36,174 nt of DNA from Betaproteobacteria bacterium (GTDB lineage Bacteria; Pseudomonadota; Gammaproteobacteria; Burkholderiales; Burkholderiaceae). Both the position numbers and the translations under genes were made by a program. Below the pieces are notes generated by a model. It saw only the letters and a program-made list of their open reading frames with translations, did no database searches and was not told the origin of the DNA. The stretch lies in contig RFXC01000014.1 in assembly GCA_009921765.1 (NCBI GenBank), positions 1-36,174 on the forward strand, given 5' to 3'. Positions 424-20,445 of the stretch are shown in pieces. Within the stretch, counting starts at the first letter, position 1, and the number at the start of each line of letters is the position of its first letter.

Positions 424-579
424 CGGGGTTCTCCTCGCTCAAGTGCGGCATTGGACACCGCCTGATGGCTGTTGATATTCTCAACGCCCATCATAAAGAG
501 ACCGGCGACTTGCCTGGCGAATGGCCGGGCCTTTTCGAACTCCATCCCCCTCCACGAATTGTCATTGACGGGTGAACCG

Positions 580-1622
580 ATGAGCCAAGGCATGAGCCAA
601 TGGCTGGCAGGCGTTCGTATCCTCGATCTGTCGCAATACATCCCGGGACCGCTAGCGAGCCTGCTGCTCGCCGACATGGGCGCTGATGTCCTGAAGATCG
701 AGCCTCCCTCGGGCGATCCCATGCAAACACTCGGACCGCGGAACCACGCGGGCGAAGGACTGTTTCATCAGACGCTCAACGCTGGCAAGCGTATTCTCCG
801 GATCGATCTCAAGCATCCAAAAGGACGCGAGGCGCTGCTTGCGCTTGCGCGCGAGGCCGACGTGCTGATCGAGGGCTTCAGGCCCGGCGTGATGGAGCGA
901 CTGGGGCTGGGCATTGGGTTGCTCAGGGCGCGTCGCTGCAGAAAGCCGGACATGACGCCAACTATCTTGCCGAGGCCGGCGTACTGGATCGCAATGGTCA
1001 TGGCGACCCGGTGTTTTTCGATCCGCCGGTTGCAGACGTATCAGGCAGCCTCTTTGCGGCGATCGCGATCCTGGGCGCGCTTCAGGGGCGCCACAGGACC
1101 GGACAGGGCTGCGCAATCGATCTGGGGCTTGGCGATGTCATCATGCCGCTTCAGATGCTGCAGGTGGCCGACTTCGGCGAGAACCGTGCGGTTCCTGAGC
1201 GACGAGCCACCTATCTGAACGGTGGTGCGGCGTATTACCAGGTGTATCGCACCCGCGATGATCGGCATGTGGTGGTCGGAGCGGTCGAGCCCAAGTTCTG
1301 GCGACGGTTCAGCGAAACAGCAGGCCACCCGGAGTGGGTGGCTCGGCAGGTCGAGCCCCTGCCGCAACACCGGTTGATCGCGGACGTGGCCGAGGTGATG
1401 GCCGCGCTGTCGTTCGATGAGTGCCTGGCTCGATTTTCTGACGATGAATGCTGCGTCTCGCCGGTGCTTGCGCTCGATGAGGCAATGGCCAGCCCTCGCC
1501 TCGCCAGTCGTCGACTGGTGGTTCGGGCACCTGACGGCAGCCTTCAGGCGCTATTCCCGGCCTGGGTGGATGGCGCCCCGCCCGCCGTCCGGCCAGCGGT
1601 GAAACAGGGCACAGCCGACTGA
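580..1622 (+). pseudogene. CaiB/BaiF family III CoA-transferase, frameshifted by an internal deletion
   Basis: Would move CoA between acyl-CoA and a free acid. The first frame gives a normal N-terminus (SQWLAGVRILDLSQYIPGPL, ADMGADVLKIEPPSGD, up to VMERLGLG) and then turns to nonsense near 912. The second frame resumes at about 918 with AQGASLQKAGHDANYLAEAG and continues through FFDPPVADVSGSLFAA to a stop at 1622. Family members have roughly 20 residues between LGLG and this point (a segment like NPxLVYCxISGFG); here only about 8 bases remain, so about 55 bases appear deleted and the frame is changed. The Asp of the GHD motif, the usual catalytic position, survives in the second frame. Start at the ATG at 580 (GGTGA upstream) or 592. 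It is either a true pseudogene or a sequence/assembly error. The intact paralogue is at 5310. Confidence 0.85.
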
Positions 1623-7549: not shown

Positions 7550-7565
7550 TTGAAAGGGAGCATTC

Positions 7566-9293
7566 ATGAACCATGTTGAGTCGGTCGTCTGGCCTCGAAG
7601 CGCCAGAACGATCACCTCGCGCCCGCTTGCGGCGCGGCTCGACTCACTGGAGGGTAAGCGTATCGCCTTCCTGTGGGACTACCTCTTCCGAGGCGACGAG
7701 ATCTGGGACCTGCTCAAGGCCGAACTCGCCAGCCGCTTCCCTGGTATCAGCTTTATCGACTGGGACCAGTTCGGATCCACTCACGGGGAGGACGAGCATC
7801 GCGTGCTCGCCGAGCTGCCGGCCAAGCTGAAGGCGCTTCAGGTCGACGCCGTCGTCTCCGGAATGGGTTGCTGAGGCAGCTGCACGCCCGCCGTGTTGCG
7901 GGTGAGCGCTGTGGCTGAGCAAGCCGGCATTCCGAGTTCATCGCTCTGCTGCGAGGGGTTCCTCGGGCAGGCCCGTACCACCGCGGAAGGGTTGGGGTAT
8001 TCCAGCCTGCCGCTCGCCAAGGTACCGGGCCATGTTGATGTGCAGCGACCCGACGAGTTGCGCGCGGGCGTGCTTGGCACGACCGTGAACGACCTCATCC
8101 GAAATCTCACCGAACCAGTGGTAACGGTTGCGCAGAGCCCGGATCCGGGCCCGCGAGAGATCGTATTCACTGGCACCTCTGATGAGATCAACCGCTTCTA
8201 TATCGAGAACGGTTGGAGCGACGGCCTGCCCATCGTCGCCCCCACCATGGCACGTATTCAGGCCTTTCTCGATTTTGTTGACCGTGACCCCGACGAGGTT
8301 CTCGGAACGCTGCTGCCCGACAACCGCCAGGCCACGATCTGGAACGTGGCGGTCAACGGCGTAATCGCCGGGTGCCGCCCCGAGTACATGCCGGTGCTGG
8401 TTGCGCTCGTCGAAGCGATGGCCGATTCGCACTACGGTGTTGAGCACAGCGGCAATACCCCTGGCGCCGAGACCCAGATCATCATCAACGGCCCAATCGC
8501 CCGGACGCTGGGTTTCAATACCGAACAAGGGGCGCTGCGCGACGGCTTTCAGCCCAACACAGCCATCGGACGGTTCTGGCGGCTTTATCTGCGCAATGTT
8601 GCGGGGTTCATGCTCCATCAAAACGACAAGGGCACGTTCGGTGGCACATGGAATGTGGTGCTCGCCGAAAACGAGGCGGTGCTCAGCCGAATCGGGTGGC
8701 ACAACGTCGCGCAAGACCTCGGCCAGCCAGCAGGGAGCAATGCGGTCACCATCTCGCGCTTCACTGGGCGCAACGTCATCGTCTCGGTCTTCGGCGACAG
8801 CCCCGACAAGGTGCTGCCCTATCTGGCCGATGCCATGGTGACCCATACCACCTGGGAAGTGATCTTCGTGGTGGGAATCGCAAACGGCACCTATCAGCCG
8901 CTACTGGTGCTGAGCCCGCTGATCGCCGAGATGCTGGCGCGCGCCGGAATGTCCAAGGCCGATCTCCGGCAGCAACTGTTCGAGCGCGCCCGAATGCCCG
9001 CGAGGCGGTTCGAGAACCTCATGACGAACTGGACCAATCTTGTGCCGGGCGGCAGGCGCGGTCTCTTCGAAATGACCCGTCTCGGCAAAGCGCCCAAGCT
9101 CTTCGGCGAGTCGCGCGACCCCGAACGGCTGGTACCCATCGTCTGCAAGCCTGAGGACATCATCATCGCCGTGTGCGGCGATCCGCTGCGCTCCAACTGC
9201 ATGTTCATGCCGCACAACGGCATGCTGGGCTTCACAACGGTCAAGCCGATCCGTCTGCCTGAACGCTGGGAACAGCGGGTCGGAGCCCTTTGA
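7566..9293 (+). CDS. UGSC-type selenoprotein, TGA at 7872-7874 read as selenocysteine
   Basis: 575 residues if the in-frame TGA is translated as selenocysteine 103. The region before the TGA (MNHVESVVWP to VVSGMGC) and after it (GSCTPAVLRVSAVAEQAGIP) share one frame and join into GMGC-U-GSCTPAV, the Sec-Gly-Ser-Cys motif for which a (seleno)protein family is named. Cys102, Cys106 and Cys128-129 provide possible redox partners. Residues 1-185 form an alpha/beta domain; residues about 206-575 form a second domain (GWSDGLPIVAP, NGVIAGCRPEYMP, CGDPLRSNCMFMPHNG) homologous to the next protein. A stem-loop follows the TGA and selB lies 9 kb downstream. AAGGGAG at 7554-7559 supports the ATG at 7566; the second half has no Shine-Dalgarno or natural start of its own. 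No signal peptide, so cytoplasmic. The reaction is unknown; a selenol-based reduction is my inference. Confidence 0.85.
7877..7911 (+). promoter_or_regulatory. Candidate bacterial SECIS element
   Basis: Directly after the TGA at 7872-7874 the RNA can form an outer 4-bp stem CAGC (7877-7880)/GCTG (7908-7911), an internal loop, and a 7-bp inner stem CGCCCGC (7885-7891)/GCGGGTG (7898-7904, one G-U pair) closed by the 6-base loop CGUGUU (7892-7897). The apical loop starts 17 bases after the TGA and has G as its second base, which agrees with the bacterial SECIS consensus as I recall it. It lies within the coding sequence, as bacterial SECIS elements do, and should be bound by the C-terminal winged helices of SelB. 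Confidence 0.7.
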
Positions 9294-9315: not shown

Positions 9316-10518
9316 ATGAGCGACGTTCGCTCCCCGTCACACTGGCTGCTGATTCCAGTCGGCCAGCAGGCAGGCGGCGCCTGGATTGACGACACGGTGT
9401 CGGCGCGAATCGCGGAGAGCGAGGCCCGCGATTCGCTGCTCGCCCGCTCACCCCGGGTGGGCCAGTTCCCGCGACAGCGCGTCGAGGTGATCACTTCGGC
9501 CAACCCCGCGGCCGATGTCAACGAACTGTACGCAGAGCGCGGTTGGACCGATGGGCTCCCCATTGTTCCGCCCGAAATCGGTGCCGTGAAGCGGATGCTG
9601 CTTGGCAGTTCGCGATCGGCGACCACCGTGCTGGGTGAACTCGAGCCGCTACAGGGTCAGGCCACATTGGAAAAAGTTGCCGCCAACGCAGTGATGGCGG
9701 GCTGCCGCCCCGAGCATTTTTCGGTGGTGGTCGCAGCGGTGGAAGCCTTGCTCGACCCCGCTTTCAATCTGCGCGGCGTGCAGACCACCGACGAGAACGT
9801 CGCGCCGCTTCTGGTGGTGAGCGGACCGATTGTGAAGCGCCTGGGCATCAATAGCGGGTTCGGTCTTCTCGGGCCGGGTTGGCGGGCCAACGCGTCGATT
9901 GGTCGCGCGCTTCGGCTCATCATGCAGAACATCGGCGGCGGCTGGCCAGGCGCCGTGTCCTACGCGGGACTCGGCCAGGCTGCGCGGTATTCGCTCTGCA
10001 TCGCCGAAGATGAGTCAGCCAGCCCATGGCCATCCCTGCACGCCGATCTGGGGCTGGCACCCGGGGCCAGCGCAGTAACGCTGCTTCGCGCCGAAACCCT
10101 CGTCAACGTGACTGGCGGGCTGGAGGAAATCGCCAGCGCGATGGCAAGCGCGAGTTCGGCATTTTCCATTCGCTGGAACGGCATCTCCACGGTGATCATG
10201 TCGCCGGTGGTCGCCAGAATGCTCGCCGATCAGGGACTGGATAAGGCGGCCGTGCGCCAGATCCTTCACGAACGTGGGCGTTGGACCACCGAGCAGTGGC
10301 GCGGTTCGTGGCTTTATCGGACCGTTGGTGACGAGACAAGATGGCCTCAATGGGTGCAGGATGCTGCCTCGCGCGGCTCGATTCCGGTCACCGCGACCCC
10401 CGACGACCTCACTCTCATCGTCGCAGGCGGCGACGTACCGGTCCCTCAGCACGCATGGTGTCCGGCCTGGGGGTACCCGGCCTGTCGAATCACTCGAATC
10501 ATTGAGGAACAGCGATGA
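9316..10518 (+). CDS. Paralogue of the selenoprotein C-terminal domain, function unknown
   Basis: 400-residue protein whose residues about 66-400 match the C-terminal domain of the selenoprotein upstream: ADVNELYAERGWTDGLPIV against DEINRFYIENGWSDGLPIV, NAVMAGCRPEHF against NGVIAGCRPEYM, ASIGRALRLIMQNIGG against TAIGRFWRLYLRNVAG. A conserved Cys sits in AGCRPE in both. It lacks the Sec domain; the first 65 residues are unrecognised and have no Sec or Cys. No signal peptide or membrane segment is seen. It starts 22 bases after the selenoprotein and overlaps the reductase-like gene by ATGA, so all three should be made together. It may form a heteromeric complex with the selenoprotein. I know no biochemical function for this domain. 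Confidence 0.75.
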   Translation: MSDVRSPSHWLLIPVGQQAGGAWIDDTVSARIAESEARDSLLARSPRVGQFPRQRVEVITSANPAADVNELYAERGWTDGLPIVPPEIGAVKRMLLGSSRSATTVLGELEPLQGQATLEKVAANAVMAGCRPEHFSVVVAAVEALLDPAFNLRGVQTTDENVAPLLVVSGPIVKRLGINSGFGLLGPGWRANASIGRALRLIMQNIGGGWPGAVSYAGLGQAARYSLCIAEDESASPWPSLHADLGLAPGASAVTLLRAETLVNVTGGLEEIASAMASASSAFSIRWNGISTVIMSPVVARMLADQGLDKAAVRQILHERGRWTTEQWRGSWLYRTVGDETRWPQWVQDAASRGSIPVTATPDDLTLIVAGGDVPVPQHAWCPAWGYPACRITRIIEEQR

Positions 10519-11432
10519 GTGGCCCGGTTGATCTGGCAGTGGTGGGTAGCGGCGTGGCTGCCTATGTGGCAGCCCTCGAGGCTGCATCCGCCGGCATGCG
10601 GGTGTTGCATCTGGCGGGCACGGGCCTGCCGGGTGGTCTGGTGGCCAATATCGGCGCACTGGACGATTACCCCGGCTCGCCCAACCCGGTGTCTGGTGCC
10701 GAACTGATCGACGCGCTGGGCCGTCGGGGACTCGATTCAGGCATCGAGCGCGTCAGCCAGGATGCGCTGTCACTCGAACGTACCGCTACAGGCTTTGCGA
10801 TCGCAGGTACCCAGGATCGCTGGCAGGCGGCTCGGGTGATTGCCGCGACGGGTGCCGTGCTGAAACCGCTTACTGTTCCTGGTGCGGAACGCTTCGTGAA
10901 CCGCGGACTCCTACAGTGCGCCTGGTGCAACGCCGGGCTGTATCGCGGGCGGCGGGTGGTCGTGGTGGGCGGGGGCGATTCAGCCCTCCAGGAAGCCCTT
11001 CATCTCGCCCGTCACGCCGACTCGGTCGTGATGGTGGTGCGCGGCGACACGCTTCGTGCGCGCCAGCGCTTTGCCGCACGCGCAGCCGATGTCGAGTCGA
11101 TCGAGTTTCGCTGGGAGAGCGAACTGCTGTCGCTCGAGGGCGCTGATGGACTGGAAGGCGTCATGATCCGCGACCGCTACGCCGACGCGCCCGAGCGGAT
11201 CGACTGCGATGCGGTATTTGCCTACATCGGACTCTCGCCCTGCTCGGACTGGCTGGGCGCCCTGGTCGAGCGCGACCCGCAGGGCGCCGTGATCACCGAT
11301 AACGGGCTGCAGACGCGCACACCCCATCTGTACGCAGTGGGCGCGCTTCGGAGCGGCTATTCGGGGCGGCTCGCGGTTGCGATCGGCGAAGCGACGCTTG
11401 CAGCCCAACTCGCGACAGGCGCCACCGCCTGA
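10515..11432 (+). CDS. Divergent thioredoxin-reductase-like FAD/NAD(P)H oxidoreductase
   Basis: 305-residue two-dinucleotide-fold flavoprotein of the low-molecular-weight thioredoxin reductase type. FAD site GSGVAAYVAA (residues 11-20), a redox pair C135-A-W-C138 in QCAWCNAG, and an NAD(P)H site VVGGGDSALQEAL (about 150-162). Two usual features are altered: the Asp after the second Cys (CATCD in classical enzymes) is Asn139, and the C-terminal FAD motif, normally AAGD, reads AVGALRSG. The CXXC pair is kept, so dithiol reduction remains possible with changed acid-base chemistry. The ATG overlaps the preceding stop (ATGA). By position it is the natural electron donor for the selenoprotein/paralogue pair; this is inferred, not shown. 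Confidence 0.82.
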   Translation: MSGPVDLAVVGSGVAAYVAALEAASAGMRVLHLAGTGLPGGLVANIGALDDYPGSPNPVSGAELIDALGRRGLDSGIERVSQDALSLERTATGFAIAGTQDRWQAARVIAATGAVLKPLTVPGAERFVNRGLLQCAWCNAGLYRGRRVVVVGGGDSALQEALHLARHADSVVMVVRGDTLRARQRFAARAADVESIEFRWESELLSLEGADGLEGVMIRDRYADAPERIDCDAVFAYIGLSPCSDWLGALVERDPQGAVITDNGLQTRTPHLYAVGALRSGYSGRLAVAIGEATLAAQLATGATA

Positions 11433-11475
11433 ACCCAGGTATTCATCCGTTGACCTGATCAACCCAAGGACCACT

Positions 11476-12231
11476 ATGCGCGACTATCTCGCCTGGCGAA
11501 TGGCATTCGGCGTTGCAACGCCCTCGACCAACACCGTCGTTCAGCCCGAGTACGACGAGATGCGACCGGCAGGCGTGACCAATCACCTCGGCCGCATGGT
11601 GATTCACGAGCGACCGGTAAGCAGCTCTGAAGATTTCAATCAGCTGGTCGAAGACATCGATCGCGCGCTCGAACCGGCTGTGGCAAGCGTCATGGATGCG
11701 CGGCCCAATGCGTTTGTGCTCGGGATTTCGGCGCTTGCGGTGTGGGGCGGCAACCGGGAATGGGGCGAACACTTGAAAGCCAGGATCCGCAAGGTGGCCG
11801 GTCACGACATTCCGGTGGCGCTCGCCTCCGACGCGGTGGTCGCAGCGCTCAAGGCTCACGGCGTCAAACGCAAGATCGCAGTGATGGAACCCTACTATCC
11901 GTCGATTGAGCCACGACTGCAGGGTGTGCTGGGAAGCTTCGGCTACGACATCCTGCGCTTCAATCACATGCGAGGCAGCAATCCCGCTTCCTACTCCGTT
12001 CTCACCGCGCAGGACATGATCCGCGCCATGCGATCCATCGACGGCGACGATATCGAAGCCATTGTCCAGTTCGGCGCGAACCTCCCCATGGGCCGTCTGG
12101 CCGACGAGGCTGAGCGCTGGCTCGACAAACCCGTGATCAGCGTGAATGTAGCCACCTATTGGCACGCGCTGCGAACCAATGGGATCAACGACCGTATCCG
12201 GGGATTCACCCGGCTGCTATCCGAGTTCTGA
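11476..12231 (+). CDS. Maleate isomerase/arylmalonate decarboxylase-like protein lacking catalytic cysteines
   Basis: 251-residue member of the Asp/Glu racemase superfamily, branch of maleate isomerase and arylmalonate decarboxylase: FGVATPSTNTVVQPEYDEM at the N-terminus, an anion-binding segment at residues 81-90 (VLGISALAVW) and AIVQFGANLPM near 195-205, then KPVISVN. Maleate isomerase uses a Cys in each half and arylmalonate decarboxylase one in the second half; here both positions are Gly (about 83 and 200) and the whole protein has no Cys. It therefore cannot use the known Cys-based mechanism. AAGGA lies 5 bases before the ATG. It is last in the selenoprotein cluster and ends 14 bases from the convergent gene, so it probably acts on an intermediate of the same pathway. 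Confidence 0.8.
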   Translation: MRDYLAWRMAFGVATPSTNTVVQPEYDEMRPAGVTNHLGRMVIHERPVSSSEDFNQLVEDIDRALEPAVASVMDARPNAFVLGISALAVWGGNREWGEHLKARIRKVAGHDIPVALASDAVVAALKAHGVKRKIAVMEPYYPSIEPRLQGVLGSFGYDILRFNHMRGSNPASYSVLTAQDMIRAMRSIDGDDIEAIVQFGANLPMGRLADEAERWLDKPVISVNVATYWHALRTNGINDRIRGFTRLLSEF

Positions 12232-12245
12232 TTCGCAGGCCGTGC

Positions 12246-13160
12246 TCAGCCTGCCTGGCCCAGGCTGCGCTCCGCAGCCTCTGCAAATGAAAAATCAACA
12301 TAGGTTTCGGCGCGCATTGAGGCCCGGGTGGGCAGATCGCGAATCAAGCTGCTTACCTCGATAAGCGAGCGCACGGCCGCCACCGACGGGCGACCGTCAG
12401 GCGGAAAAATCGTGTCGCGCGTGTATTCATGCCAGGCCTGATCGGCATAGCGACGCTCGACACCGGTTTCGCGGCAGGCCACCGCCGCGACGGCGTCCGG
12501 ATCGCTGTAAAACAGACGATGCGCCCGGATGAAGGCCCGCATGAACCGTACCGCTGTGTCGGCATTTGCCTGCAGCCAGGATCGCCTGGCATCGAGCGAC
12601 GTGAACTGAAAATCCGGAAAGAGGTTGCGCGGACTGCCGAGATCGGCGAAACCAAGGTCGATCGCGATGTGGTTCAGGGGCGCGCCCTGCAGCCCAGCAT
12701 CGATTTCGCCTGACCGCAGACGCTCCCAGCGGGACAGAATCGGGCCGACTGCCACCAGCGTGTAGTCGCTGGGGTAGTGCAGCCCCGCATCGGCGAGCAG
12801 CCGCATGACGAGCGAGGAACTGCCAGCTCGAAGCGACGACACCCCGATCTTCGCGCCCCGCAGATCGCTCACCGCGCGCACGCCCGGTCGAGCAATCAGC
12901 GAAAACGGCAGACGGTTGACGTTGCCGCCGATGATCGTGAGATCGCCCCCCGATTCACGGTTGAGGAGCGTGTTTTCGGTGACATTGAGGGCGAGATCGA
13001 GCGCCCCACTCACCATCCCCTCCGTGACCTGATCAATCGCTTCGATCAGGTGCAACTCAAGCGATAGCCCTTCGCTGCCGAAGAATCCTGCCTCGATGCC
13101 CAACCACAGCGGCAGGTTGAAATAATTTCGCGAAACCGCGCCCACTCTGAGCAATGTCAT
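12246..13160 (-). CDS. NMT1/THI5 (SsuA/TauA-like) substrate-binding domain protein without signal peptide
   Basis: 304-residue periplasmic-binding-protein-like protein of the NMT1 type: LLRVGAVSRNYFNLPLWLGI, LEAIDQV region, DLALNVTENTLL, PGVRAVSDLRGAKIGVSSLR and a C-terminal helix-rich part. No signal peptide or lipobox is visible: the fold begins within the first ten residues. It may therefore be cytoplasmic, a sensor or an enzyme rather than a transporter subunit; no ABC permease or ATPase of this type lies beside it. The ATG at 13160 has GGGAG 5 bases upstream; TTG at 13163 is next to it but worse placed. It is convergent with the maleate-isomerase-like gene and divergent from the TRAP operon. 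Confidence 0.8.
   Translation of the reverse strand: MTLLRVGAVSRNYFNLPLWLGIEAGFFGSEGLSLELHLIEAIDQVTEGMVSGALDLALNVTENTLLNRESGGDLTIIGGNVNRLPFSLIARPGVRAVSDLRGAKIGVSSLRAGSSSLVMRLLADAGLHYPSDYTLVAVGPILSRWERLRSGEIDAGLQGAPLNHIAIDLGFADLGSPRNLFPDFQFTSLDARRSWLQANADTAVRFMRAFIRAHRLFYSDPDAVAAVACRETGVERRYADQAWHEYTRDTIFPPDGRPSVAAVRSLIEVSSLIRDLPTRASMRAETYVDFSFAEAAERSLGQAG
12247..12267. terminator. Hairpin at the junction of convergent genes, possible terminator
   Basis: CAGCCTG (12247-12253) and CAGGCTG (12261-12267) form a perfect 7-bp stem with a 7-base loop, at the very end of the minus-strand gene and 16 bases after the plus-strand stop at 12231. No T-run follows on either strand, so intrinsic termination is uncertain; it could still block readthrough or protect 3' ends. 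Confidence 0.35.
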
Positions 13161-13319
13161 CAATGCTCCCGTTCAGGTTGGTGGCTGCGCTCTCACCCCC
13201 AGGCTGCCGGCCTGCTGAACGCGTCGATCGATCAGGTGAGCACGCGCCGGCTGATGATAGAGGCAGAGCAGGTCCGGTCGCCAAGCCGCCGGGCGCTTTC
13301 CGGAAGATCGCTGCCACGC

Positions 13320-13348
13320 TTGTCAATCGCCCCAGGACTGCGGATACT
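13320..13348 (+). promoter_or_regulatory. Candidate promoter of the TRAP transporter operon
   Basis: TTGTCA (13320-13325) and GATACT (13343-13348) stand 17 bases apart, matching 5/6 and 4/6 of the sigma70 boxes. Transcription would start near 13355, about 59 bases before the DctP start. The 253-base space between the divergent genes otherwise shows no gene; no operator was recognised. Confidence 0.45.
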
Positions 13349-13413
13349 GGACATCGAGCGATCCACGCCCGTCACCAGAACGGCGGGCGCCATTCCAACA
13401 ACAGGAGACACGC

Positions 13414-14436
13414 ATGTTCGATCCGTCCCGCCGTACCCGGCTCGCGGCAGGCGCCGCACTCGCTGGCGCAATTCTGGCTGCAGGCCCCATACAGTCCGCG
13501 AGCGCGGCCGAGAAATGGGACATGTTCGTGTTCCCAGGTGCCACACACCCCATCAGTCTGCGCCTGAAAGAGTTCTCCGACGAGGTCAGAAAGCGCACCA
13601 ATGGCTACCTCACCATTACCGTGCGGCCGCAGGGCGAACTGCCCTTCAAAGCCACCGAAGTGGTGCGCGCAACCGGTCTGGGTCAGGTACAGATTGGCGA
13701 AGCCTACTCGGGCTTCATCTCGGGCGCCGTGCCTATCTCGTCGATCGGCAACCTGCCGTTTCTTGTGCGCAACTCCGAAGAGCTCGCCAAGATCTATCCC
13801 ATCATCAGCAAATATGCCGAGCCGGAATTCCGCAAGGCAGGCGTCAAGACGCTGTTCTACTTCGAGTGGCCCGATCAGAACCTCTGGGGCCGCGGACCGC
13901 AGGTGAAAAAGCTGGAAGATTTCGCCGGTCGAAAATTCCGCACCACCGACGTGAAGCAAACCGAAATGCTTCGCCAATTTGGCGCAGCGTCGGTATCGCT
14001 CACGCTGGCAGAAGTGCCCGCAGCAGTGGAGCGTGGCGTGGTCGAGGGTTTTCTCACCGCAGGCTTCAATGTGGTGGGCGCGAAGTGGTACGAGTTCGTG
14101 AAGTGGGGCTTTACCCCCGGCTTTCACGTCGGGGGACCCGACTACATGCTCATCAACCTGGCCGCCTACAACAAGCTACCGGCAGAGGTGCGCAAGGTCG
14201 TCGACGAGGTGGCTGCGGTCTGGGGGCCACGCATGACCCAGCAGAATCTCGCTGACGAGCAGAAAGACCGCGAAGTGCTGAAGACCAAGCATGGGGTGGA
14301 CATCTTCACACCCTCCGCTGCGGAAATCGACCGTATGACAGCCAAGATGATCCCCTACTGGGACTCATGGGCCCAGCAGAACGGTCCCAATGCCGTCGCA
14401 GCGCTCAAGGAAATCCGTCAGGTTCTGGGTCGCTGA
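13414..14436 (+). CDS. TRAP transporter substrate-binding protein (DctP family)
   Basis: 340-residue periplasmic binding protein of a TRAP transporter, which normally takes up organic acids driven by a sodium or proton gradient. Signal peptide with an RR-containing n-region (FDPSRRTRLAAGAAL) and cleavage near SASAAEKWDM. Typical body features are HPISLRLKEFSDEV, TVRPQGELPF, QIGEAYSGF, and KKLEDFAGRKFRTTD with the conserved Arg that usually holds the substrate carboxylate. AGGAG at 13403-13407 precedes the ATG. The two membrane subunits follow. The ligand cannot be predicted. Confidence 0.92.
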   Translation: MFDPSRRTRLAAGAALAGAILAAGPIQSASAAEKWDMFVFPGATHPISLRLKEFSDEVRKRTNGYLTITVRPQGELPFKATEVVRATGLGQVQIGEAYSGFISGAVPISSIGNLPFLVRNSEELAKIYPIISKYAEPEFRKAGVKTLFYFEWPDQNLWGRGPQVKKLEDFAGRKFRTTDVKQTEMLRQFGAASVSLTLAEVPAAVERGVVEGFLTAGFNVVGAKWYEFVKWGFTPGFHVGGPDYMLINLAAYNKLPAEVRKVVDEVAAVWGPRMTQQNLADEQKDREVLKTKHGVDIFTPSAAEIDRMTAKMIPYWDSWAQQNGPNAVAALKEIRQVLGR

Positions 14437-14459
14437 GACGCGCCTCACCGCCTGACCAA

Positions 14460-14487
14460 GGCCGGCGCCCGCAGCGGGGCGCTGGCC
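14460..14487 (+). repeat. Strong intergenic hairpin between DctP and DctQ genes
   Basis: GGCCGGCGCCC (14460-14470) pairs with GGGCGCTGGCC (14477-14487): 11 pairs including one G-U, with loop GCAGCG. No T-run follows, so a full terminator is unlikely. Such a structure after a binding-protein gene commonly protects the upstream mRNA and lowers expression of the permease genes, fitting the need for more DctP than membrane subunits. Confidence 0.55.
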
Positions 14488-14503
14488 GATTTCGGGATCA
14501 ACC

Positions 14504-15031
14504 ATGCAAACCCAATCGGCCCAACCTGACGCGGCCCCGACGCGCAGAAGATCGTGGATCGACAAGATCGTTGATTTCGGCGAAGTCCTGGCTTCGATCA
14601 GCGTGGTCCTGATCCTCATCCTGGTCTGCGCAGAAGTATTTTTCAGGCTCTTCAACCGCTCCACGATGGTGGCTGATGAACTGGGCGCGTATCTGAACGC
14701 TGCCATCGTCTTTCTCGGCATGTCTTACACGCTGCGCGAAGGCGGCTTCATCAGAATTGAAGCCCTCTACGAGCGGCTGAGCGGGGCAGCGCTCCGGGCT
14801 GTCGACATTCTGTGCGGGCTCATCAGCCTCGCATTTGCCGCGGTGATTGCCTGGTTCATATGGCTTCACATCGGCTACGCCTACTCAATGAATACGCGCT
14901 CCACCAGCATCCTGCAGACACCCGAATATGTTCCTCAGTCACTCATGCTGATCGGACTGGTGATATTGGTGCTTCAGTTGCTCGTACTTATTTTCCGCCC
15001 GCCCAAACGCGTGGCCAACGAGTTTCTCTGA
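14504..15031 (+). CDS. TRAP transporter small permease subunit (DctQ family)
   Basis: 175-residue inner-membrane protein with four hydrophobic segments: around residues 25-50 (VLASISVVLILILVCAEVFF), 65-82, 105-125 (CGLISLAFAAVIAWFIW) and 145-165 (LMLIGLVILVLQLLVLIF). The region VVADELGAYLNAAIVFLGMS and the REGGFIRIE loop match the DctQ family. The Shine-Dalgarno is weak. Its stop overlaps the DctM start by one base (TGATG at 15029-15033), so the two membrane subunits should be made together. Confidence 0.9.
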   Translation: MQTQSAQPDAAPTRRRSWIDKIVDFGEVLASISVVLILILVCAEVFFRLFNRSTMVADELGAYLNAAIVFLGMSYTLREGGFIRIEALYERLSGAALRAVDILCGLISLAFAAVIAWFIWLHIGYAYSMNTRSTSILQTPEYVPQSLMLIGLVILVLQLLVLIFRPPKRVANEFL

Positions 15032-16335
15032 TGGATACCGGCGCCCTGTCAATCCTGATGCTGGTCACCCTGTTCGGCTGCCTGTTGCTTGGGCAGTGGA
15101 CTGCATTCGCACTGGGCTCGGTGGGCGTTCTGGTGCTGGTGCTGAGCAAGGGCCTGATCGGTCTTACCTCGCTCAGTTCGGTCGTCTGGAACTCGGCCAA
15201 CAGCTACATCCTGATTTCCATCCCGATGTTCCTGCTGATGGGGGAAATCATCCTGCGCAGCGGCGTGAGTTCAAAGTTCTATGCGGGCGTGGTTGCCCTG
15301 CTCGGGCGTCTGCCTGGCGGGCTGTTGCACGCCAACATCGCGAGTTGCGCGGTGTTCTCGGCAGTCAGTGGATCCAGCGTAGCCACCGCGGCAAGCGTAG
15401 GCACTGTGGCCATTCCAGAGCTGCGCAAGGCAGGCTATAACGACCGGGCGCTGCTGGGCTCGCTTGCTGCCGGCGGCACGCTGGGCATTCTCATTCCCCC
15501 CAGCATCGTGCTGGTACTCTACGGCGCACTGGTCGACGAATCAATCACCCAGCTGTTTGTGGCCGCGGTCTTGCCCGGACTGGTGATGACCGGTTTTTTC
15601 ATCGTGTACATCGCTGTCCTTGTGATGGTGAATCCCTCGGTTGCGCCCCCCACGACGAACCGGATGCCCGCCGCCGAGCGCCGGCGGGCGGTACTGCATC
15701 TCATCCCCATCGTCGCGCTGCTGCTGGTGGTGCTGGGCGGGATTTACGGCGGGTTCACCACGCCGACCGAAGCCTCCGCGGTTGGCGCGCTGGGCGCCAT
15801 CATTCTGGCAGCCGCCTATCGCCGACTCACCTGGACCATGTTCAGGGAAGCGCTGACCGCAACAGTCAAAACAACCTGCATGGTCTCGCTGGTGATCATC
15901 GGGGCTCAGATTCTTTCCACCGCCCTCACCTTTTCAGGCGTGAGCCGCGAGGTGAGCGAATGGATGCTCGCGCTAGGTCTGTCGAAGTGGGCATTCTTTA
16001 CCGCTGTCATGTTCCTCTATCTGGTACTCGGCTGCTTTGTTGACGGCCTCTCCATGATGTACATGACGCTGCCAGTACTGCTGCCAGTCATCAAGTTCAT
16101 GGAGTTCGATCTGGTCTGGTTCGGCGTGGTGATGGTGGTCATTATCGAAGTCGGTCAGATCACGCCGCCAGTGGGTCTCAACCTCTTCACCATTCATGGC
16201 ATCTCGGGTGGAGCAAAGTTTTCCGATGTGTCGGCGGGCTCATTTCCTTATGTGCTCCTGATGCTCCTGATGATCGCCGTCCTCGCGGTGTGGCCGGAGC
16301 TTGCCCTGTGGCTGCCGCAAACCCTCAAGGATTAG
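15031..16335 (+). CDS. TRAP transporter large permease subunit (DctM family)
   Basis: 434-residue inner-membrane protein with about a dozen hydrophobic segments; it forms the transport channel. Diagnostic stretches: IPMFLLMGEIILRSGVSSKF, AVFSAVSGSSVATAASVGTV, SLAAGGTLGILIPPSIVLVLYG, GGFTTPTEASAVGALGA and QITPPVGLNLFTIHGI. The ATG at 15031 shares its A with the DctQ stop. A longer frame opening at 14812 is a shadow of DctQ. selB starts 46 bases downstream and may be cotranscribed. Confidence 0.93.
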   Translation: MDTGALSILMLVTLFGCLLLGQWTAFALGSVGVLVLVLSKGLIGLTSLSSVVWNSANSYILISIPMFLLMGEIILRSGVSSKFYAGVVALLGRLPGGLLHANIASCAVFSAVSGSSVATAASVGTVAIPELRKAGYNDRALLGSLAAGGTLGILIPPSIVLVLYGALVDESITQLFVAAVLPGLVMTGFFIVYIAVLVMVNPSVAPPTTNRMPAAERRRAVLHLIPIVALLLVVLGGIYGGFTTPTEASAVGALGAIILAAAYRRLTWTMFREALTATVKTTCMVSLVIIGAQILSTALTFSGVSREVSEWMLALGLSKWAFFTAVMFLYLVLGCFVDGLSMMYMTLPVLLPVIKFMEFDLVWFGVVMVVIIEVGQITPPVGLNLFTIHGISGGAKFSDVSAGSFPYVLLMLLMIAVLAVWPELALWLPQTLKD

Positions 16336-16381
16336 CGCAGCGCCTCTGTCGGCTTGAAGGACGGCAAGGGGTTCAAAAGCC

Positions 16382-18415
16382 ATGAGCCTGATCATTGCGG
16401 TGGCCGGTCATATCGATCACGGTAAAACAGCGCTGGTCCGCGCGCTGACCGGTATCGAAACGGACCGGCTGCCGGAAGAGCGCGAGCGAGGAATTTCCAT
16501 CGAAGCGGGGTTTGCTCATTGGCGTCGCGCCAAGACCGACGATCAGCCACGGGTGTCGTTCGTCGACGTTCCCGGCCACGAGCGGTACATCCGGAATATG
16601 CTGGCAGGCATTCAGGGGGCGCGCGCGGCGTTGCTCGTGATCGCCGCTGACGACGGCGTCATGCCGCAGACGCGTGAACACGCGGAGATCCTGAGTTTGA
16701 TGGGTGTCCGGAATTGGGTAGTCGCCCTCACCAAATCCGATCTTCTCGATGCGGCTCAACTCGCCCACCGTATGACCTCGGTCCAGACCTGGCTGGCCGG
16801 CGAAAAGATCAACGCCGAGGTGATCCCGGTCAGCGCACATACCGGAGCCGGGATCGCCCTCCTCAGCAGTCGAATTGAAGCCCTCGCGTTGATCGAGCAG
16901 CGCCTGACTGAACAGGACACCGAACGGGCGACTGAACACACCGCACGACTCTGCGTGGACAAAAGCTTTATCGCCTCGGGCGATGGTCTGGTGGTCACCG
17001 GCCTCCTGATCTCCGGCGTGCTGAGGGTCGGTGATACCGTGCGGGTGAGTCCATCGGGTCAAGCAGCCCGTGTGCGCGGACTTCAGGTGGCTGGTCAGGC
17101 GGTCGGTGAAGCGCGCTCAGGTTCACGATGCGCCATCAACCTGGCGGGCTCGGGGATCGACCGCCAGTCCGCCGGGCGAGGCGATTGGATCGTATCGAAC
17201 GAGTTGCATCATCCGGTCCGCGTCGTCGATGTCAAAGTACATGGGTCGAGCGCCGTTGTCGGCAAGCGCGCACCGTCGCCCTCAGGGTATGAACCGGTTC
17301 AAGGCGGTGGGGCCCATCAATCAACCCGCCTACCCGCCGACGTTCGGGTCTACGCAGGAACTGCCCGGTTCAATGCGCGAGTCTCCGCATTCTCGGCCCC
17401 CCCACAGGCGGACAGCCCTCAACCTGGGTGGGTTCGACTCCTGCTCTCACAGCCAGTGAGTGCCGTGGTGGGTGATCGATGGATCGTTCGGAGCAGCGAC
17501 GGATCGCATACGCTGGGCATGGCAGAGGTTGTCTGGCCCGTTGAGGCCACAGACGGACTGCGTCGCTCTGCCCAGGCGGAATGGTTGAAAGGTGTCAGCC
17601 TGGCATCGCCCGCGTCCTGGCTCGCCTCGGCACTGGCCCAATTGCCTGGCGGTATCGCACCGGAGCGGTTTGCAGCGGCCTGGGCCCTGACCGATGCGGC
17701 GGCAAACGACCGCTCACTGAGCGCTGGCGCGGTCTTGGTCAGGCAAACCCGGGGGAACATGCTTTTCGATCAGGCCCGACTCGACGGGGTTCGGGACATG
17801 CTGCTGACCGAGGTCGAGCGGTGGCAGAAGCAGAATCCGGAAAGCCTGGGGATCGAGTGGAGCGCATTGACGGGGACGCTCGAGCGGCGCGACCGCCGGC
17901 ACTATGCGGCTGTTGCACTGTCTGCGCTCCAGGCAGAGGGAGCATTGATTCGACACGGCGATCGGATCTTCACTCCAGACCATGTGCCCTTGGCGAGCGC
18001 CGCGGACCTCGCCTTCCGTTTGCGCGCCCTGCCCATGCTCGCCGAGCGACGCTCACGCTCAATACACGAACTGATTGAGCTGCTGGGCATGTCGTTGGTA
18101 GAGCTTCGCCTTGCCCTCGACCGCCTCGCCCTGCAGGGCTACGTTGTGGCGATCACGCCGCAACGCTACCTTGCGGTGCCTCAGATCGAAGCACTGGCCG
18201 CCACAGCCATTTCAATTGCCGCAACAGGCGAATTACGGGCCGGTGATTTCAGTCGCGCGACGGGTATCGGACGCAATTTGGGGATTGATGTGCTGGAATT
18301 TTTCGATCGGATCCGATTGACACGACGCCTGGGCGATCGACGAATCGTGATTGACGCTCAGGCCCTGGGCCGTGTGCTCCGGTCCGACACGCGCCCGACG
18401 GCTGAAGTCGCCTGA
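16382..18415 (+). CDS. selB: Selenocysteine-specific translation elongation factor SelB
   Basis: 677-residue GTPase that binds Sec-tRNA(Sec) and, through its C-terminal winged helices, the SECIS stem-loop, so that a UGA is read as selenocysteine. EF-Tu-like motifs: G1 GHIDHGKT (residues 9-16), switch I ERERGISIEAGF, G3 DVPGHERYIRNML (62-74) and G4 TKSD (117-120). C-terminal winged helices end with FSRATGIGRNLGIDVLEFFDR and TRRLGD, a SelB hallmark. It is slightly longer than usual (about 610-640), apparently through a loop near residues 295-320 rich in Pro, Ser and Gly. AAGG lies upstream of the ATG. No selA, selD or selC is in the window. The obvious client here is the selenoprotein at 7566. 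Confidence 0.95.
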   Translation: MSLIIAVAGHIDHGKTALVRALTGIETDRLPEERERGISIEAGFAHWRRAKTDDQPRVSFVDVPGHERYIRNMLAGIQGARAALLVIAADDGVMPQTREHAEILSLMGVRNWVVALTKSDLLDAAQLAHRMTSVQTWLAGEKINAEVIPVSAHTGAGIALLSSRIEALALIEQRLTEQDTERATEHTARLCVDKSFIASGDGLVVTGLLISGVLRVGDTVRVSPSGQAARVRGLQVAGQAVGEARSGSRCAINLAGSGIDRQSAGRGDWIVSNELHHPVRVVDVKVHGSSAVVGKRAPSPSGYEPVQGGGAHQSTRLPADVRVYAGTARFNARVSAFSAPPQADSPQPGWVRLLLSQPVSAVVGDRWIVRSSDGSHTLGMAEVVWPVEATDGLRRSAQAEWLKGVSLASPASWLASALAQLPGGIAPERFAAAWALTDAAANDRSLSAGAVLVRQTRGNMLFDQARLDGVRDMLLTEVERWQKQNPESLGIEWSALTGTLERRDRRHYAAVALSALQAEGALIRHGDRIFTPDHVPLASAADLAFRLRALPMLAERRSRSIHELIELLGMSLVELRLALDRLALQGYVVAITPQRYLAVPQIEALAATAISIAATGELRAGDFSRATGIGRNLGIDVLEFFDRIRLTRRLGDRRIVIDAQALGRVLRSDTRPTAEVA

Positions 18416-18417
18416 TC

Positions 18418-18573
18418 ATGAAGCGCCCAGGTACTGCCCGTCGTCCTCGAAATCCGGTTGCCCGCGCGGTGCGTACGCCCCTTTATCGACCGCGCACCGA
18501 GGAGGACAAGCGACGCAAGCTTCGCGAACAGCCTGCCCGGCCGCGTGGCCCGGTGGAGTCCGACGAGCACTGA
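18418..18573 (+). CDS. Small basic protein, possible ArfA-like ribosome rescue factor
   Basis: 51-residue Arg/Lys-rich ORF that starts 2 bases after the selB stop. The segment RNPVARAVRTPLYRPR followed by TEEDKRRK resembles the core of alternative ribosome rescue factor ArfA, which in E. coli has DPLFRQRVEKNKKGKGSY at the matching place; the Pro-Leu-aromatic-Arg-x-Arg pattern and following Glu and Lys agree. The KGKGSY element is not present and the acidic tail (PVESDEH) is unusual, so the match is only moderate. There is no strong Shine-Dalgarno; the gene may depend on coupling to selB. It could also be a chance ORF. Confidence 0.4.
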   Translation: MKRPGTARRPRNPVARAVRTPLYRPRTEEDKRRKLREQPARPRGPVESDEH

Positions 18574-18637
18574 CACCAAGGTCGCCCCACAAGCCTTACC
18601 ATTGTTTACCTTAACCCATCCCAGACCAGCCTGACCC

Positions 18638-19933
18638 ATGCAGACCCCTGTCCCCCCGCCACCGCCCGCACAGGCTGCGCCGTTCACCCGCCTTGGGCAC
18701 GCTGCCTCTCCTCGCCTCTGGCCTGAAGAGGGGTATCGGCGTGCGCCGTATTGGGTATATACCGACGCCGATATCTATGCGCTCGAGCAGCAACGCATCT
18801 TTCGCGGACGCGCCTGGCACTATGTCGGCCTGGAAGTCGAGGTGCCCGGGCCCGGCACCTTCAAAACCACCTTCATCGGCGACACACCTGTTGTGCTGGC
18901 CCGCGCGGAAGACGGCAGCCTCCATGTGGTGGTGAATCGCTGCGCCCACCGGGGCAATCTGATCTGCCGTGAGCCCTTTGGGAAAGCTTCCAGGCTCTAC
19001 TGTGTCTATCACGCCTGGAGCTATACACTTTCGGGCGACCTCAGCCACGCCGCCTTCAGCCAGGGGCTCCGTGGTGAAGGCGGTCTGCCTGCCGATTTCG
19101 ACAAGGCGAAGCATGGACTGCGCAAGCTTCGGGTCGACACCCTGTGCGGGCTGGTGTTTGCGAGCTTTCACGACGACCTCGAACCGCTTGCCGATTGGCT
19201 GGGCGAAGTCACGCCAGGCATTCGCCGTGTGCTGAACCGTCCGCTGAAGGTGCTGGGCTACGACACGCAACGCATCCACGCAAACTGGAAGACGTATCAC
19301 GAGAATCCGCGGGACTCCTACCACGCGAACATTCTGCACACCTTCTATGGCACGTTCGGTTTATCCCGGCAGTCGCAGGAATCGGCCATGACCCTTGATC
19401 GTTCAGGCCGCCACGTCTACTTCTACACCAAAGCCGGTACCGAGAAAAAATCGAGCGACTATGAGAACACCGCAAGCCAGTTGCGCTCGCACAATGAGCA
19501 GATGAAACTGGAAGATCCCTCCATGCTTCGCTGGCACGACGAGTTTGGCGACGGCATCAGCGTGCAGATCCTCAATGCCTATCCTTCGTTCGTACTGCAC
19601 CAGATCGCCAACAGCCTCGCCACCCGGCAACTGATTCCGCGCGGCGTTCGGCAGTGCGATCTGGTCTGGACTTACCTCGGCTTTGCCGACGACGACGAGG
19701 CGACCACGCGCGTCCGGCTCAATCAGACCAACCTGGCGGGCTCGGCAGGCCTGGTATCGGTGGAAGATGCTGCGGTCTGCGAGATGATGCAGCGGGCGTT
19801 TGCCGACGGCGAGGACGGCGCATCCTTCATCGAGATGGGCGGCAAGACACTCGAAAGCGGGGGCTCGAGCAAGCTCTCGGAACGCGCAATCCGGAATTTC
19901 TGGAACGTGTATCGACAGGACATGGGGCTTTGA
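18638..19933 (+). CDS. Rieske non-haem iron oxygenase, alpha (large) subunit
   Basis: 431-residue catalytic subunit of an aromatic-ring-hydroxylating-type oxygenase, which uses O2 and electrons from a reductase to hydroxylate its substrate. The Rieske [2Fe-2S] ligands are C102-A-H104 and C122-V-Y-H125 (NRCAHRG, YCVYHAW). The mononuclear iron site appears in ENPRDSYHANILH: Asp226 bridging, His229 and His234 as ligands. The start follows a Pro-rich segment and has no clear Shine-Dalgarno; the sequence just before it carries TTACC-type repeats (18596-18610). The small subunit starts 2 bases after the stop. No ferredoxin or reductase gene is in the window, so electrons must come from elsewhere. 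Substrate not deducible. Confidence 0.92.
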   Translation: MQTPVPPPPPAQAAPFTRLGHAASPRLWPEEGYRRAPYWVYTDADIYALEQQRIFRGRAWHYVGLEVEVPGPGTFKTTFIGDTPVVLARAEDGSLHVVVNRCAHRGNLICREPFGKASRLYCVYHAWSYTLSGDLSHAAFSQGLRGEGGLPADFDKAKHGLRKLRVDTLCGLVFASFHDDLEPLADWLGEVTPGIRRVLNRPLKVLGYDTQRIHANWKTYHENPRDSYHANILHTFYGTFGLSRQSQESAMTLDRSGRHVYFYTKAGTEKKSSDYENTASQLRSHNEQMKLEDPSMLRWHDEFGDGISVQILNAYPSFVLHQIANSLATRQLIPRGVRQCDLVWTYLGFADDDEATTRVRLNQTNLAGSAGLVSVEDAAVCEMMQRAFADGEDGASFIEMGGKTLESGGSSKLSERAIRNFWNVYRQDMGL

Positions 19934-19935
19934 AG

Positions 19936-20424
19936 ATGGACCTTGCCCTGCACAGTACGCACATCAACACGGTGTCATGGCTGATCGCTGATTGGGCACA
20001 TGCCATTGATGACGATCGCGTAGAGCGCATTGCTGAACTGATGCGCGAAGACGGTCGCTATACCGTCCGCTCGCGATTCAACGCCGATCGTGGCCTGCCG
20101 CTTGCCATCATCGATACTCACAGCGCCGCCCAGCTGCGTGACCGTATCCGGTCGATGCGCGTGGCCAACATCTACCAGCCCCAGCACTACCGACATGTAG
20201 TGTCAGCCATCCAGGTCGTTGGACGGACCGAAACTCGGCTCCTCCAGGTGCGATCCTCTTTTGCAGTGTTCCGCACGCTGGTCACCACTGGCGACACGAT
20301 CTTCTTTGCCGGTGGACGAAGCGATGATCTGATCGATGTCAACGGTCCCGAGCCACGCTTTGCGCATCGGCTGATGACCTTCGATTCGCGTGCGGTTGAA
20401 ACGCTGATGATCATTCCCATCTGA
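19936..20424 (+). CDS. Rieske oxygenase beta (small) subunit
   Basis: 162-residue SnoaL/NTF2-like structural subunit expected to assemble with the alpha subunit into an alpha3beta3 complex. Features: an N-terminal helix with WLIADWAHAIDDDRVERIAEL, then DGRYTVRSRFNADRG, LRDRIRSMRVANIYQPQHYRH in the place of the family's R-x-R...H segment, and strands such as RLLQVRSSFAVFRTL. ATG 2 bases after the alpha stop. It matches the usual length of about 160-180 residues. Confidence 0.88.
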   Translation: MDLALHSTHINTVSWLIADWAHAIDDDRVERIAELMREDGRYTVRSRFNADRGLPLAIIDTHSAAQLRDRIRSMRVANIYQPQHYRHVVSAIQVVGRTETRLLQVRSSFAVFRTLVTTGDTIFFAGGRSDDLIDVNGPEPRFAHRLMTFDSRAVETLMIIPI

Positions 20425-20445
20425 CCCCCGAGTCCGGAGAGGCCC

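What the first reader, a model, noticed from the sequence alone, without database searches (positions are those of the whole stretch)
7566..9293. Selenoprotein hidden by an in-frame TGA (UGSC motif)
Seen: two ORFs in the same frame are separated only by TGA at 7872-7874, giving GMGC-U-GSCTPAV with the Sec at residue 103. The second ORF begins inside a continuous domain and has no start signal of its own. The 5' half has a good Shine-Dalgarno. Known: UGSC names a (seleno)protein family, and selB is in the same window. A routine annotation would call a 102-residue fragment plus a truncated protein, or a pseudogene.
Basis: partly seen in the sequence, partly recalled or inferred. Interest (0 to 1): 0.93.

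Follow-up and report, generated by a model that had tools for sequence, protein, structure and literature searches.

The report
UGSC selenoprotein with its own SelB
A bacterial enzyme gene that looks broken by a stop codon is in fact, by all the sequence evidence, read through with the rare amino acid selenocysteine as in its relatives, and the gene cluster around it carries a second, unusual copy of the factor that delivers that amino acid.

Summary
ORF 7566-9293 is one 575-residue gene with TGA as codon 103 (7872-7874). TGA is kept in 6 of 6 related loci; Cys stands there in 11 of 11 spanning homologues. Selection is strong on both sides (dN/dS 0.03-0.08), a SECIS-like hairpin follows, and near relatives carry selA, selC and selD. 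It belongs to the known UGSC family (PF24696), in a long form that databases mostly list about 100 residues short.

(2) The window's selB is not the housekeeping one: of five genus members searched, four have at least two diverged SelBs and three have three; the third sits 75 bases behind another TGA gene. (3) One genome holds nine TGA-UGSC genes.

Substrate and chemistry are inferred. The protein is a new member of a known family; the linked extra SelB is the unusual part.

The parts
7566..9293 (+). UGSC selenoprotein gene, 575 residues, Sec at residue 103
7872..7874 (+). in-frame TGA read as selenocysteine (C-U-G-S-C)
   Evidence: TGA in 6/6 loci, Cys in 11/11 spanning homologues
7555..7560 (+). 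Shine-Dalgarno-like AGGGAG before the ATG
   Evidence: sequence
7881..7907 (+). SECIS-like apical hairpin; loop CGUGUU at 7892-7897, 19 nt after the U of the UGA, overlaps the GTG that ORF calling takes as a start (the longer fold pairs 7869-7921)
7566..8150 (+). N-terminal UGSC domain (PF24696 on residues 7-169; my cut at residue 195), predicted alternating beta/alpha fold with the Sec between strand 95-101 and helix 106-119
8160..9290 (+). C-terminal domain (residues 199-575), AlphaFold pLDDT 90, no PDB match at E<=0.001
9316..10518 (+). stand-alone paralogue of the C-terminal domain (30% over 368 alignment columns)
   Evidence: fused to a UGSC protein in database protein P0053 (55% over 397)
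10515..11432 (+). thioredoxin-reductase-like flavoprotein, candidate electron donor
   Evidence: Pyr_redox_2 113.9 bits; TIGR01292 212 bits, below its cut-off 343; near UGSC genes in L001-L004, L006, L082, L083
6593..7549 (+). TctC-type periplasmic solute receptor
   Evidence: PF03401 202 bits
11377..12231 (+). arylmalonate-decarboxylase-like protein
   Evidence: PF17645 45 bits, cut-off 25.9
12246..13163 (-). NMT1-like solute-binding protein
   Evidence: PF09084 63 bits
16382..18415 (+). second, diverged SelB (677 aa)
   Evidence: TIGR00475 288.6 bits over 242; tree; alignment

Best explanation
Shown by sequence: the gene encodes one two-domain protein whose codon 103 is a conserved UGA where homologues have Cys; it belongs to the UGSC family and is strongly selected on both sides of the UGA. 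Inferred: SelB recognises the hairpin just after the UGA and delivers Sec-tRNA; the Sec, with Cys106 (U-x-x-C), sits at the start of a helix in a Rossmann-like domain related to the Sec region of proline/glycine reductase B subunits and acts as a nucleophile on a small carboxylate-type substrate taken up by the neighbouring TctC system; the oxidised Sec/Cys pair is reduced again by the thioredoxin-reductase-like protein two genes downstream. The C-terminal domain and its stand-alone paralogue (9316-10518) form the rest of the enzyme. In this genus the cluster has also acquired its own SelB, beside the housekeeping selA-selB-selC locus elsewhere in the genome.
For: Sec: TGA in 6/6 loci; TGA-bearing UGSC matches in 11 of 61 genomes (four of the 11 appear to be the same contigs as L001, L002, L003, L005); Cys in 11/11 spanning homologues; dN/dS 0.03-0.08 on both sides. 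Hairpins: 22 of 24 TGA places folded have a loop with GU 19-22 nt after the UGA, on at least four different stem types; in 20 of 24 at most 71 of 2000 synonymous versions fold as well. Machinery: all 11 TGA-UGSC genomes have selA over its cut-off (27 of 61 do, Fisher p 3e-5) and a tRNA-Sec of 61 bits or more (28 of 61, p 5e-5; the 61-bit line is mine, set at the gap), without correction for kinship; selD in 10 of 10 tested. Reductase-B kinship: of 19 UGSC proteins, 10 list PrdB, 7 GrdH, 5 TIGR01918, 4 GrdB, 4 GrdF at E<=10, best E 1.7e-6, 3.2e-5, 1.5e-5, 2.3e-5 and 5.4e-4. Cluster: UGSC, C-domain paralogue and TrxR-like gene keep their order in L001, L002, L003, L004, L006; UGSC and paralogue are one protein in P0053.
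Against: No protein data; the own assembly is not held. Hairpin: for the window 23 of 2000 synonymous versions fold as well and 6 of 557 control windows had a lower z; four G042 paralogues fail or are weak (L086 310, L085 584, L089 1782, L090 1970 of 2000). Reductase-B kinship: the window protein itself lists GrdH and TIGR01918 only at E 0.19-0.27 and far under cut-off, and 0 of 19 list Pfam GRDB at E<=10. TrxR-like gene: in only 2 of 12 UGSC stretches of G042 and G048. G196 has a TGA-UGSC match but no SelB at E<=1e-60, with at most 3 candidates scored. TctC genes are so common (386 and 417 first-look candidates in G042 and G048) that adjacency says little. No pyruvoyl-type partner (PF09338) among the six other window proteins scanned at E<=1e-3.
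Confidence: 0.9

Rival explanations
1. The TGA is a true stop: a pseudogene, or two genes (102-aa fragment and a 466-aa protein from GTG 7893).
For: Databases list the short form: 107 of the 120 listed hits are 443-471 aa long.
Against: The same TGA recurs across orders, Cys stands there otherwise, selection runs through the region before the GTG, and the GTG lies in a hairpin loop without a visible ribosome-binding site.
Confidence: 0.02
2. The UGA is read as cysteine, not Sec, by a selB*/selC* tRNA-Cys system like that reported for Desulfobacterales, with the window's extra SelB as the factor.
For: A second SelB is in the cluster, and a second selB next to selC* tRNA-Cys is in print (PMC7609411, passages). 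Cys is the other residue at this place.
Against: No tRNA found in the window (11000-21000 also) nor in the stretches with the third SelB; one tRNA-Sec match of 61 bits or more in each of the five genus members in the listed rows; two genomes with the same UGSC core have one SelB over the cut-off.
Confidence: 0.04
3. The protein is a thioredoxin-fold thiol oxidoreductase, as suggested in 2008, with a redox-repair rather than catabolic role.
For: UxxC motif; PMC2398784 calls a Trx-like fold likely (passages).
Against: The model (pLDDT 88) alternates strand and helix; the structural rows are mixed alpha/beta such as SDR, LacI-type, FtsZ and GTPase entries, Z to 11.1, which does not exclude other folds; sequence kinship is to PrdB/GrdB.
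Confidence: 0.12
4. The extra SelB is only a dosage copy: it serves the same SECIS elements as the housekeeping SelB and is kept to raise Sec insertion when the cluster is induced.
For: GTPase motifs and C-terminal region are intact; UGSC genes elsewhere go with one SelB; the apical loop CGUGUU is the same with and without the extra SelB (L004, L006, L011, L012).
Against: It shares 32-33% identity with the housekeeping SelBs of the genus on a long stem of 1.84, so it is not a recent duplicate.
Confidence: 0.45

Closest known systems
UGSC-containing selenoprotein family (PF24696; NCBIfam NF041046; PMC2398784)
   Same: UxxC motif, Sec or Cys at the same place, Pfam domain over cut-off; a fusion of UGSC with a conserved extra domain was already noted in 2008
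   Different: long two-domain form scoring under the NCBIfam cut-off; C-domain also present as a separate downstream gene; diverged SelB in the cluster. Whether the 2008 extra domain is this C-domain was not tested.
Glycine/sarcosine/betaine/D-proline reductase component B (GrdB, GrdF, GrdH, PrdB)
   Same: Sec region related by profile; Sec followed by x-x-Cys; a thioredoxin-reductase-like gene nearby
   Different: window protein far under the curated cut-offs; no pyruvoyl proprotein partner seen in the six other window proteins scanned
selB* beside selC* tRNA-Cys in Syntrophobacterales/Desulfobacterales (PMC7609411, passages)
   Same: a second selB in a genome
   Different: no tRNA gene found near it here; linked to TGA-bearing genes instead

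Membership tests
UGSC family | Pfam PF24696 over gathering score | tested here: met
   95 of 25 bits, residues 7-169
UGSC family | NCBIfam NF041046 equivalog cut-off | tested here: not met
   47.1 of 125 bits; four homologues scanned score 13.3-56.1
UGSC family | Sec/Cys-x-x-Cys motif at a conserved place | tested here: met
   positions 103 and 106 invariant in 19 chosen sequences
Bacterial selenoprotein | in-frame UGA with Cys homologues and conservation on both sides | tested here: met
Bacterial selenoprotein | SECIS hairpin after the UGA | tested here: met
   window: loop CGUGUU 19 nt after the UGA, 23 of 2000 synonymous versions fold as well; 22 of 24 TGA places have a GU-bearing loop 19-22 nt after the UGA, L089 and L090 do not. 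No Rfam hit. Binding not tested.
Bacterial selenoprotein | selA, selB, selC, selD in the genome | tested here: inconclusive
   present in the four congeners that carry the gene; the window's own assembly is not held
Bacterial selenoprotein | Se in the protein | not testable with these tools
   needs 75Se or mass spectrometry
GrdB/PrdB reductase B subunits | curated model cut-off | tested here: not met
   window protein: GrdH 10.6 of 775, TIGR01918 10.1 of 65.45 bits; Pfam GRDB listed for 0 of 19
GrdB/PrdB reductase B subunits | sequence kinship around the Sec | tested here: met
   10 of 19 UGSC proteins list PrdB at E<=10, best E 1.7e-6; hhalign to three PrdB-like proteins E 5e-4 but probability 30; window protein alone E 0.19
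GrdB/PrdB reductase B subunits | pyruvoyl-forming partner subunit (PF09338) | tested here: inconclusive
   none in six other window proteins at E<=1e-3; weak hits in 2 of 19 UGSC proteins, best E 0.072
Thioredoxin fold | Trx-like fold | tested here: inconclusive
   model reads as alternating beta/alpha, listed rows mixed alpha/beta; absence from that list is no exclusion
SelB | TIGR00475 cut-off and intact G-domain motifs | tested here: met
   288.6 of 242.25 bits; GHIDHGKT, DVPGHE, TKSD present
selB*/selC* system | tRNA gene next to the second selB | tested here: not met
   no tRNA found in the window or in L078, L079, L080

The most novel reading that the evidence does not exclude
These bacteria run several Sec-insertion channels side by side: one SelA and one tRNA-Sec feed up to three deeply diverged SelBs, each travelling in a cassette with its own selenoprotein gene (UGSC cluster; CMD/AhpD-like TGA gene; housekeeping selABC) and tuned to that gene's SECIS, so that recoding factor and recoded gene are inherited together.
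Probability: 0.25. Interest if true: 0.82.

Novelty: new variant of a known kind. Interest (0 to 1): 0.52.

Why it matters
The UGSC family was listed in 2008 as one of the major aquatic selenoprotein families, and a 2026 review says the functions of nearly all such computed families remain largely uncharacterised (PMC2398784, PMC13188914; passages read). A link to proline/glycine-reductase B subunits, with a TrxR-like neighbour in the closer relatives, gives a first testable chemistry. If the extra SelBs are specific, nature already holds separable SelB-SECIS pairs, useful for understanding and for engineering Sec insertion. Annotation matters too: 107 of 120 listed database hits are about 100 residues short, and the three of these that I saw aligned (P0002, P0007, P0014) begin after the Sec.

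Tried and rejected

Searches behind 'not seen in print': (listings; passages of ten papers read). They show no paper in the held open library that ties UGSC to PrdB/GrdB or reports selenoprotein-linked extra SelBs in Burkholderiales; subscription papers are not covered.

Unanswered: whether the CMD/AhpD-like TGA gene occurs without the third SelB; this search did not complete.

Full report
WHAT IS THERE. The frame from ATG 7566 to TGA 9291-9293 is interrupted only by TGA 7872-7874. Read through, it gives 575 residues with GMGC-U-GSCTPAV. Pfam UGSC (PF24696) scores 95 bits against a cut-off of 25 on residues 7-169 of the read-through protein. NCBIfam's UGSC model scores 47 of 125, and neither half alone hits it at E<=1e-3. 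The 466-aa database form alone is also marked with PF24696.

IS IT SELENOCYSTEINE. One scan of genome contigs gave six distinct loci, and all six have TGA at codon 103 of the aligned frame; L006 is otherwise damaged. A database search listed 120 of 3311 hits; 107 of the 120 are 443-471 aa long. Among 17 sequences aligned, 11 homologues span the site and all 11 have Cys; P0002, P0007, P0014 and P0053 start with MLR after the site, and P0081 starts later still. In a chosen set of 19 (10 of the 15 TGA places and 9 of the 11 Cys proteins) residues 101, 103, 104 and 106 are invariant with Sec written as Cys. dN/dS against G001, G002 and G003 is 0.052-0.075 before the TGA and 0.029-0.067 after it.

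SECIS. The 27 bases from codon +3 after the UGA fold to -14.2 kcal/mol with loop CGUGUU; 23 of 2000 synonymous versions fold as well, and 6 of 557 in-frame windows of the same gene have a lower z. I folded 24 TGA places in all: 15 that passed a motif and open-length filter and nine read afterwards. In 22 the loop lies 19-22 nt after the UGA and holds GU, on different stems: one type in ten loci (the window, L001-L006, L011, L012, L084), one in L022 and L086, one in L034, L087, L088 and L091, one in the five split genes L030, L031, L032, L035 and L036 (its stem begins like the former), and L085 alone. Synonymous versions fold as well in at most 71 of 2000 for 20 of the 24. The exceptions are L086 (310), L085 (584), L089 (1782) and L090 (1970), all from G042; the last two show no such hairpin. 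I take this as moderate support.

MACHINERY. The window's own assembly is not held; G001 is nearest (21% of words). In 61 relatives, 14 have a match to the protein and 11 have a TGA-bearing UGSC match; in each of the 11 I have read at least one TGA in a U-G-x-C context (for four of them through the matching genome contigs locus). selA is over cut-off in 27 of 61 including all 11. tRNA-Sec is at 61 bits or more in 28 of 61 including all 11; all 61 ring at E<=0.001 and 43 pass the gathering score, since lesser matches reach 50 bits (other long-arm tRNAs, I take it), so the 61-bit line is mine, set at the gap. Fisher p 3e-5 and 5e-5, without correction for kinship. selD is over cut-off in 10 of 10. 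In 369 genomes of the class, 6 have UGSC, with at most 9 candidates scored per genome; 14 of the 15 matched places hold one TGA. Of the 5 genomes with a TGA form, 4 have SelB at E<=1e-60 against 18 of 369 overall, with at most 3 candidates scored per genome; G196 does not, which I cannot explain.

THE SELB. The SelB in the window (288.6 bits) is not the selABC gene. In 19 genomes searched, G001, G002, G003 and G005 each have a housekeeping SelB (beside selA and selC; read in L075 and L076) and a SelB of the window type (in G005 as two contig-end pieces below the cut-off, one of them 66% identical to the window's over 298 aa). G002, G003 and G005 have a third over the cut-off. G004 has no UGSC match and no extra SelB. 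The other 14 genomes show one SelB over the cut-off in the listed rows. In a 25-row tree the window type (100/100, stem 1.84) and the third type (100/100, stem 1.55) are separate from the housekeeping branch. All keep the GTPase motifs, and dN/dS is 0.18-0.25. Of 120 listed relatives 17 are at 66% or more; the next that covers most of the protein is at 39%. The third SelB starts 75 bases after a gene with in-frame TGA...ALHQCAY-U-TTAHSYM..., in 3 of 3 genomes (CMD family PF02627, 26.8 bits, cut-off 23). So each extra SelB stands beside or near a TGA gene. Against a strict pairing: two genomes with the same UGSC core, those of L004 and L006, have one SelB over the cut-off, and G042 and G048 with many UGSC genes have one each.

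NEIGHBOURS. UGSC, C-domain paralogue and TrxR-like gene are in the same order in L001, L002, L003, L004 and L006, and a database protein, P0053, joins a UGSC protein to a relative of the paralogue (55% over 397). Of 12 UGSC stretches of G042 and G048 only two, L082 and L083, have the TrxR-like gene, both next to UGSC, so it is not a partner of every paralogue. The CoA-ligase, MaoC-like, IclR, CaiB, TRAP and Rieske labels in that script are my reading of the sequences; I did not scan them. In five other relatives the C-domain and the UGSC domain are adjacent separate genes with a U-GSC TGA. G042 has 10 TGA-bearing places; I read nine and all nine have TGA in a UGSC/UGTC/UGRC context.

MECHANISM. 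Shown: conserved read-through frame, family, Cys/TGA exchange, extra SelB. Inferred: Sec insertion by SelB; Sec as nucleophile in a reductive reaction like that of PrdB/GrdB; recycling by the TrxR-like protein; carboxylate substrate from the TctC neighbour.

KNOWN OR NEW. UGSC selenoproteins, also fused to a conserved extra domain, have been in print since 2008 (PMC2398784, passages). A table row in PMC5029168 gives 26 and 33 for UGSC, presumably organisms and genes (passage). UGSC-motif selenoproteins in organisms whose tRNA-Sec has anticodon CUA are mentioned in PMC5330540 (passage). A second selB linked to a tRNA-Cys is in print (PMC7609411, passages). I found nothing on selenoprotein-linked extra SelBs of this kind, nor on the PrdB/GrdB kinship. 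The protein itself is thus a new member; the cluster with its own SelB is a new variant.

Noticed in passing
L079:754-1899 (+), and the same place in L078 and L080: CMD/AhpD-like gene with in-frame TGA (CAY-U-TTAH) 75 bases before a third, diverged SelB; conserved in 3 of 3 genomes.
   Followed up: partly
L098:1393-2625, L099:1432-2646, L100:1306-2619, L102: PrdB-like genes with in-frame TGA in V-U-PNCTCAV in the same genomes; a further TGA of this kind (M-U-PVC) in L101 of G152.
   Followed up: partly
G042 (L012, L084-L091), G392: Nine TGA-UGSC paralogues read in G042; nine TGA-bearing UGSC matches in G392, not read and a lower bound since only 9 candidates were scored.
   Followed up: partly
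window 472-1622: A CaiB-like CoA-transferase (my label) is split over two frames here, while L003 has one 400-aa ORF: an indel or assembly error.
   Followed up: no
G196:C55:599-1075: TGA-bearing UGSC match in a 97% complete genome without SelB at E<=1e-60, at most 3 candidates scored.
   Followed up: no
L052, L053: SelD matches of G042 and G048 contain one in-frame TGA themselves; Sec-containing SelD is known (recalled).
   Followed up: no
L030, L031, L032, L035, L036: UGSC domain as a separate gene next to a C-domain gene, with TGA in a U-GSC context.
   Followed up: partly
L085, L089, L090 (G042): TGA-UGSC paralogues without a convincing hairpin after the TGA: another SECIS shape, or none.
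   Followed up: no
L003 / G001: Record title says Bordetella parapertussis, yet it groups in one genus with MAGs titled Burkholderiales or Betaproteobacteria; the label looks doubtful.
   Followed up: no
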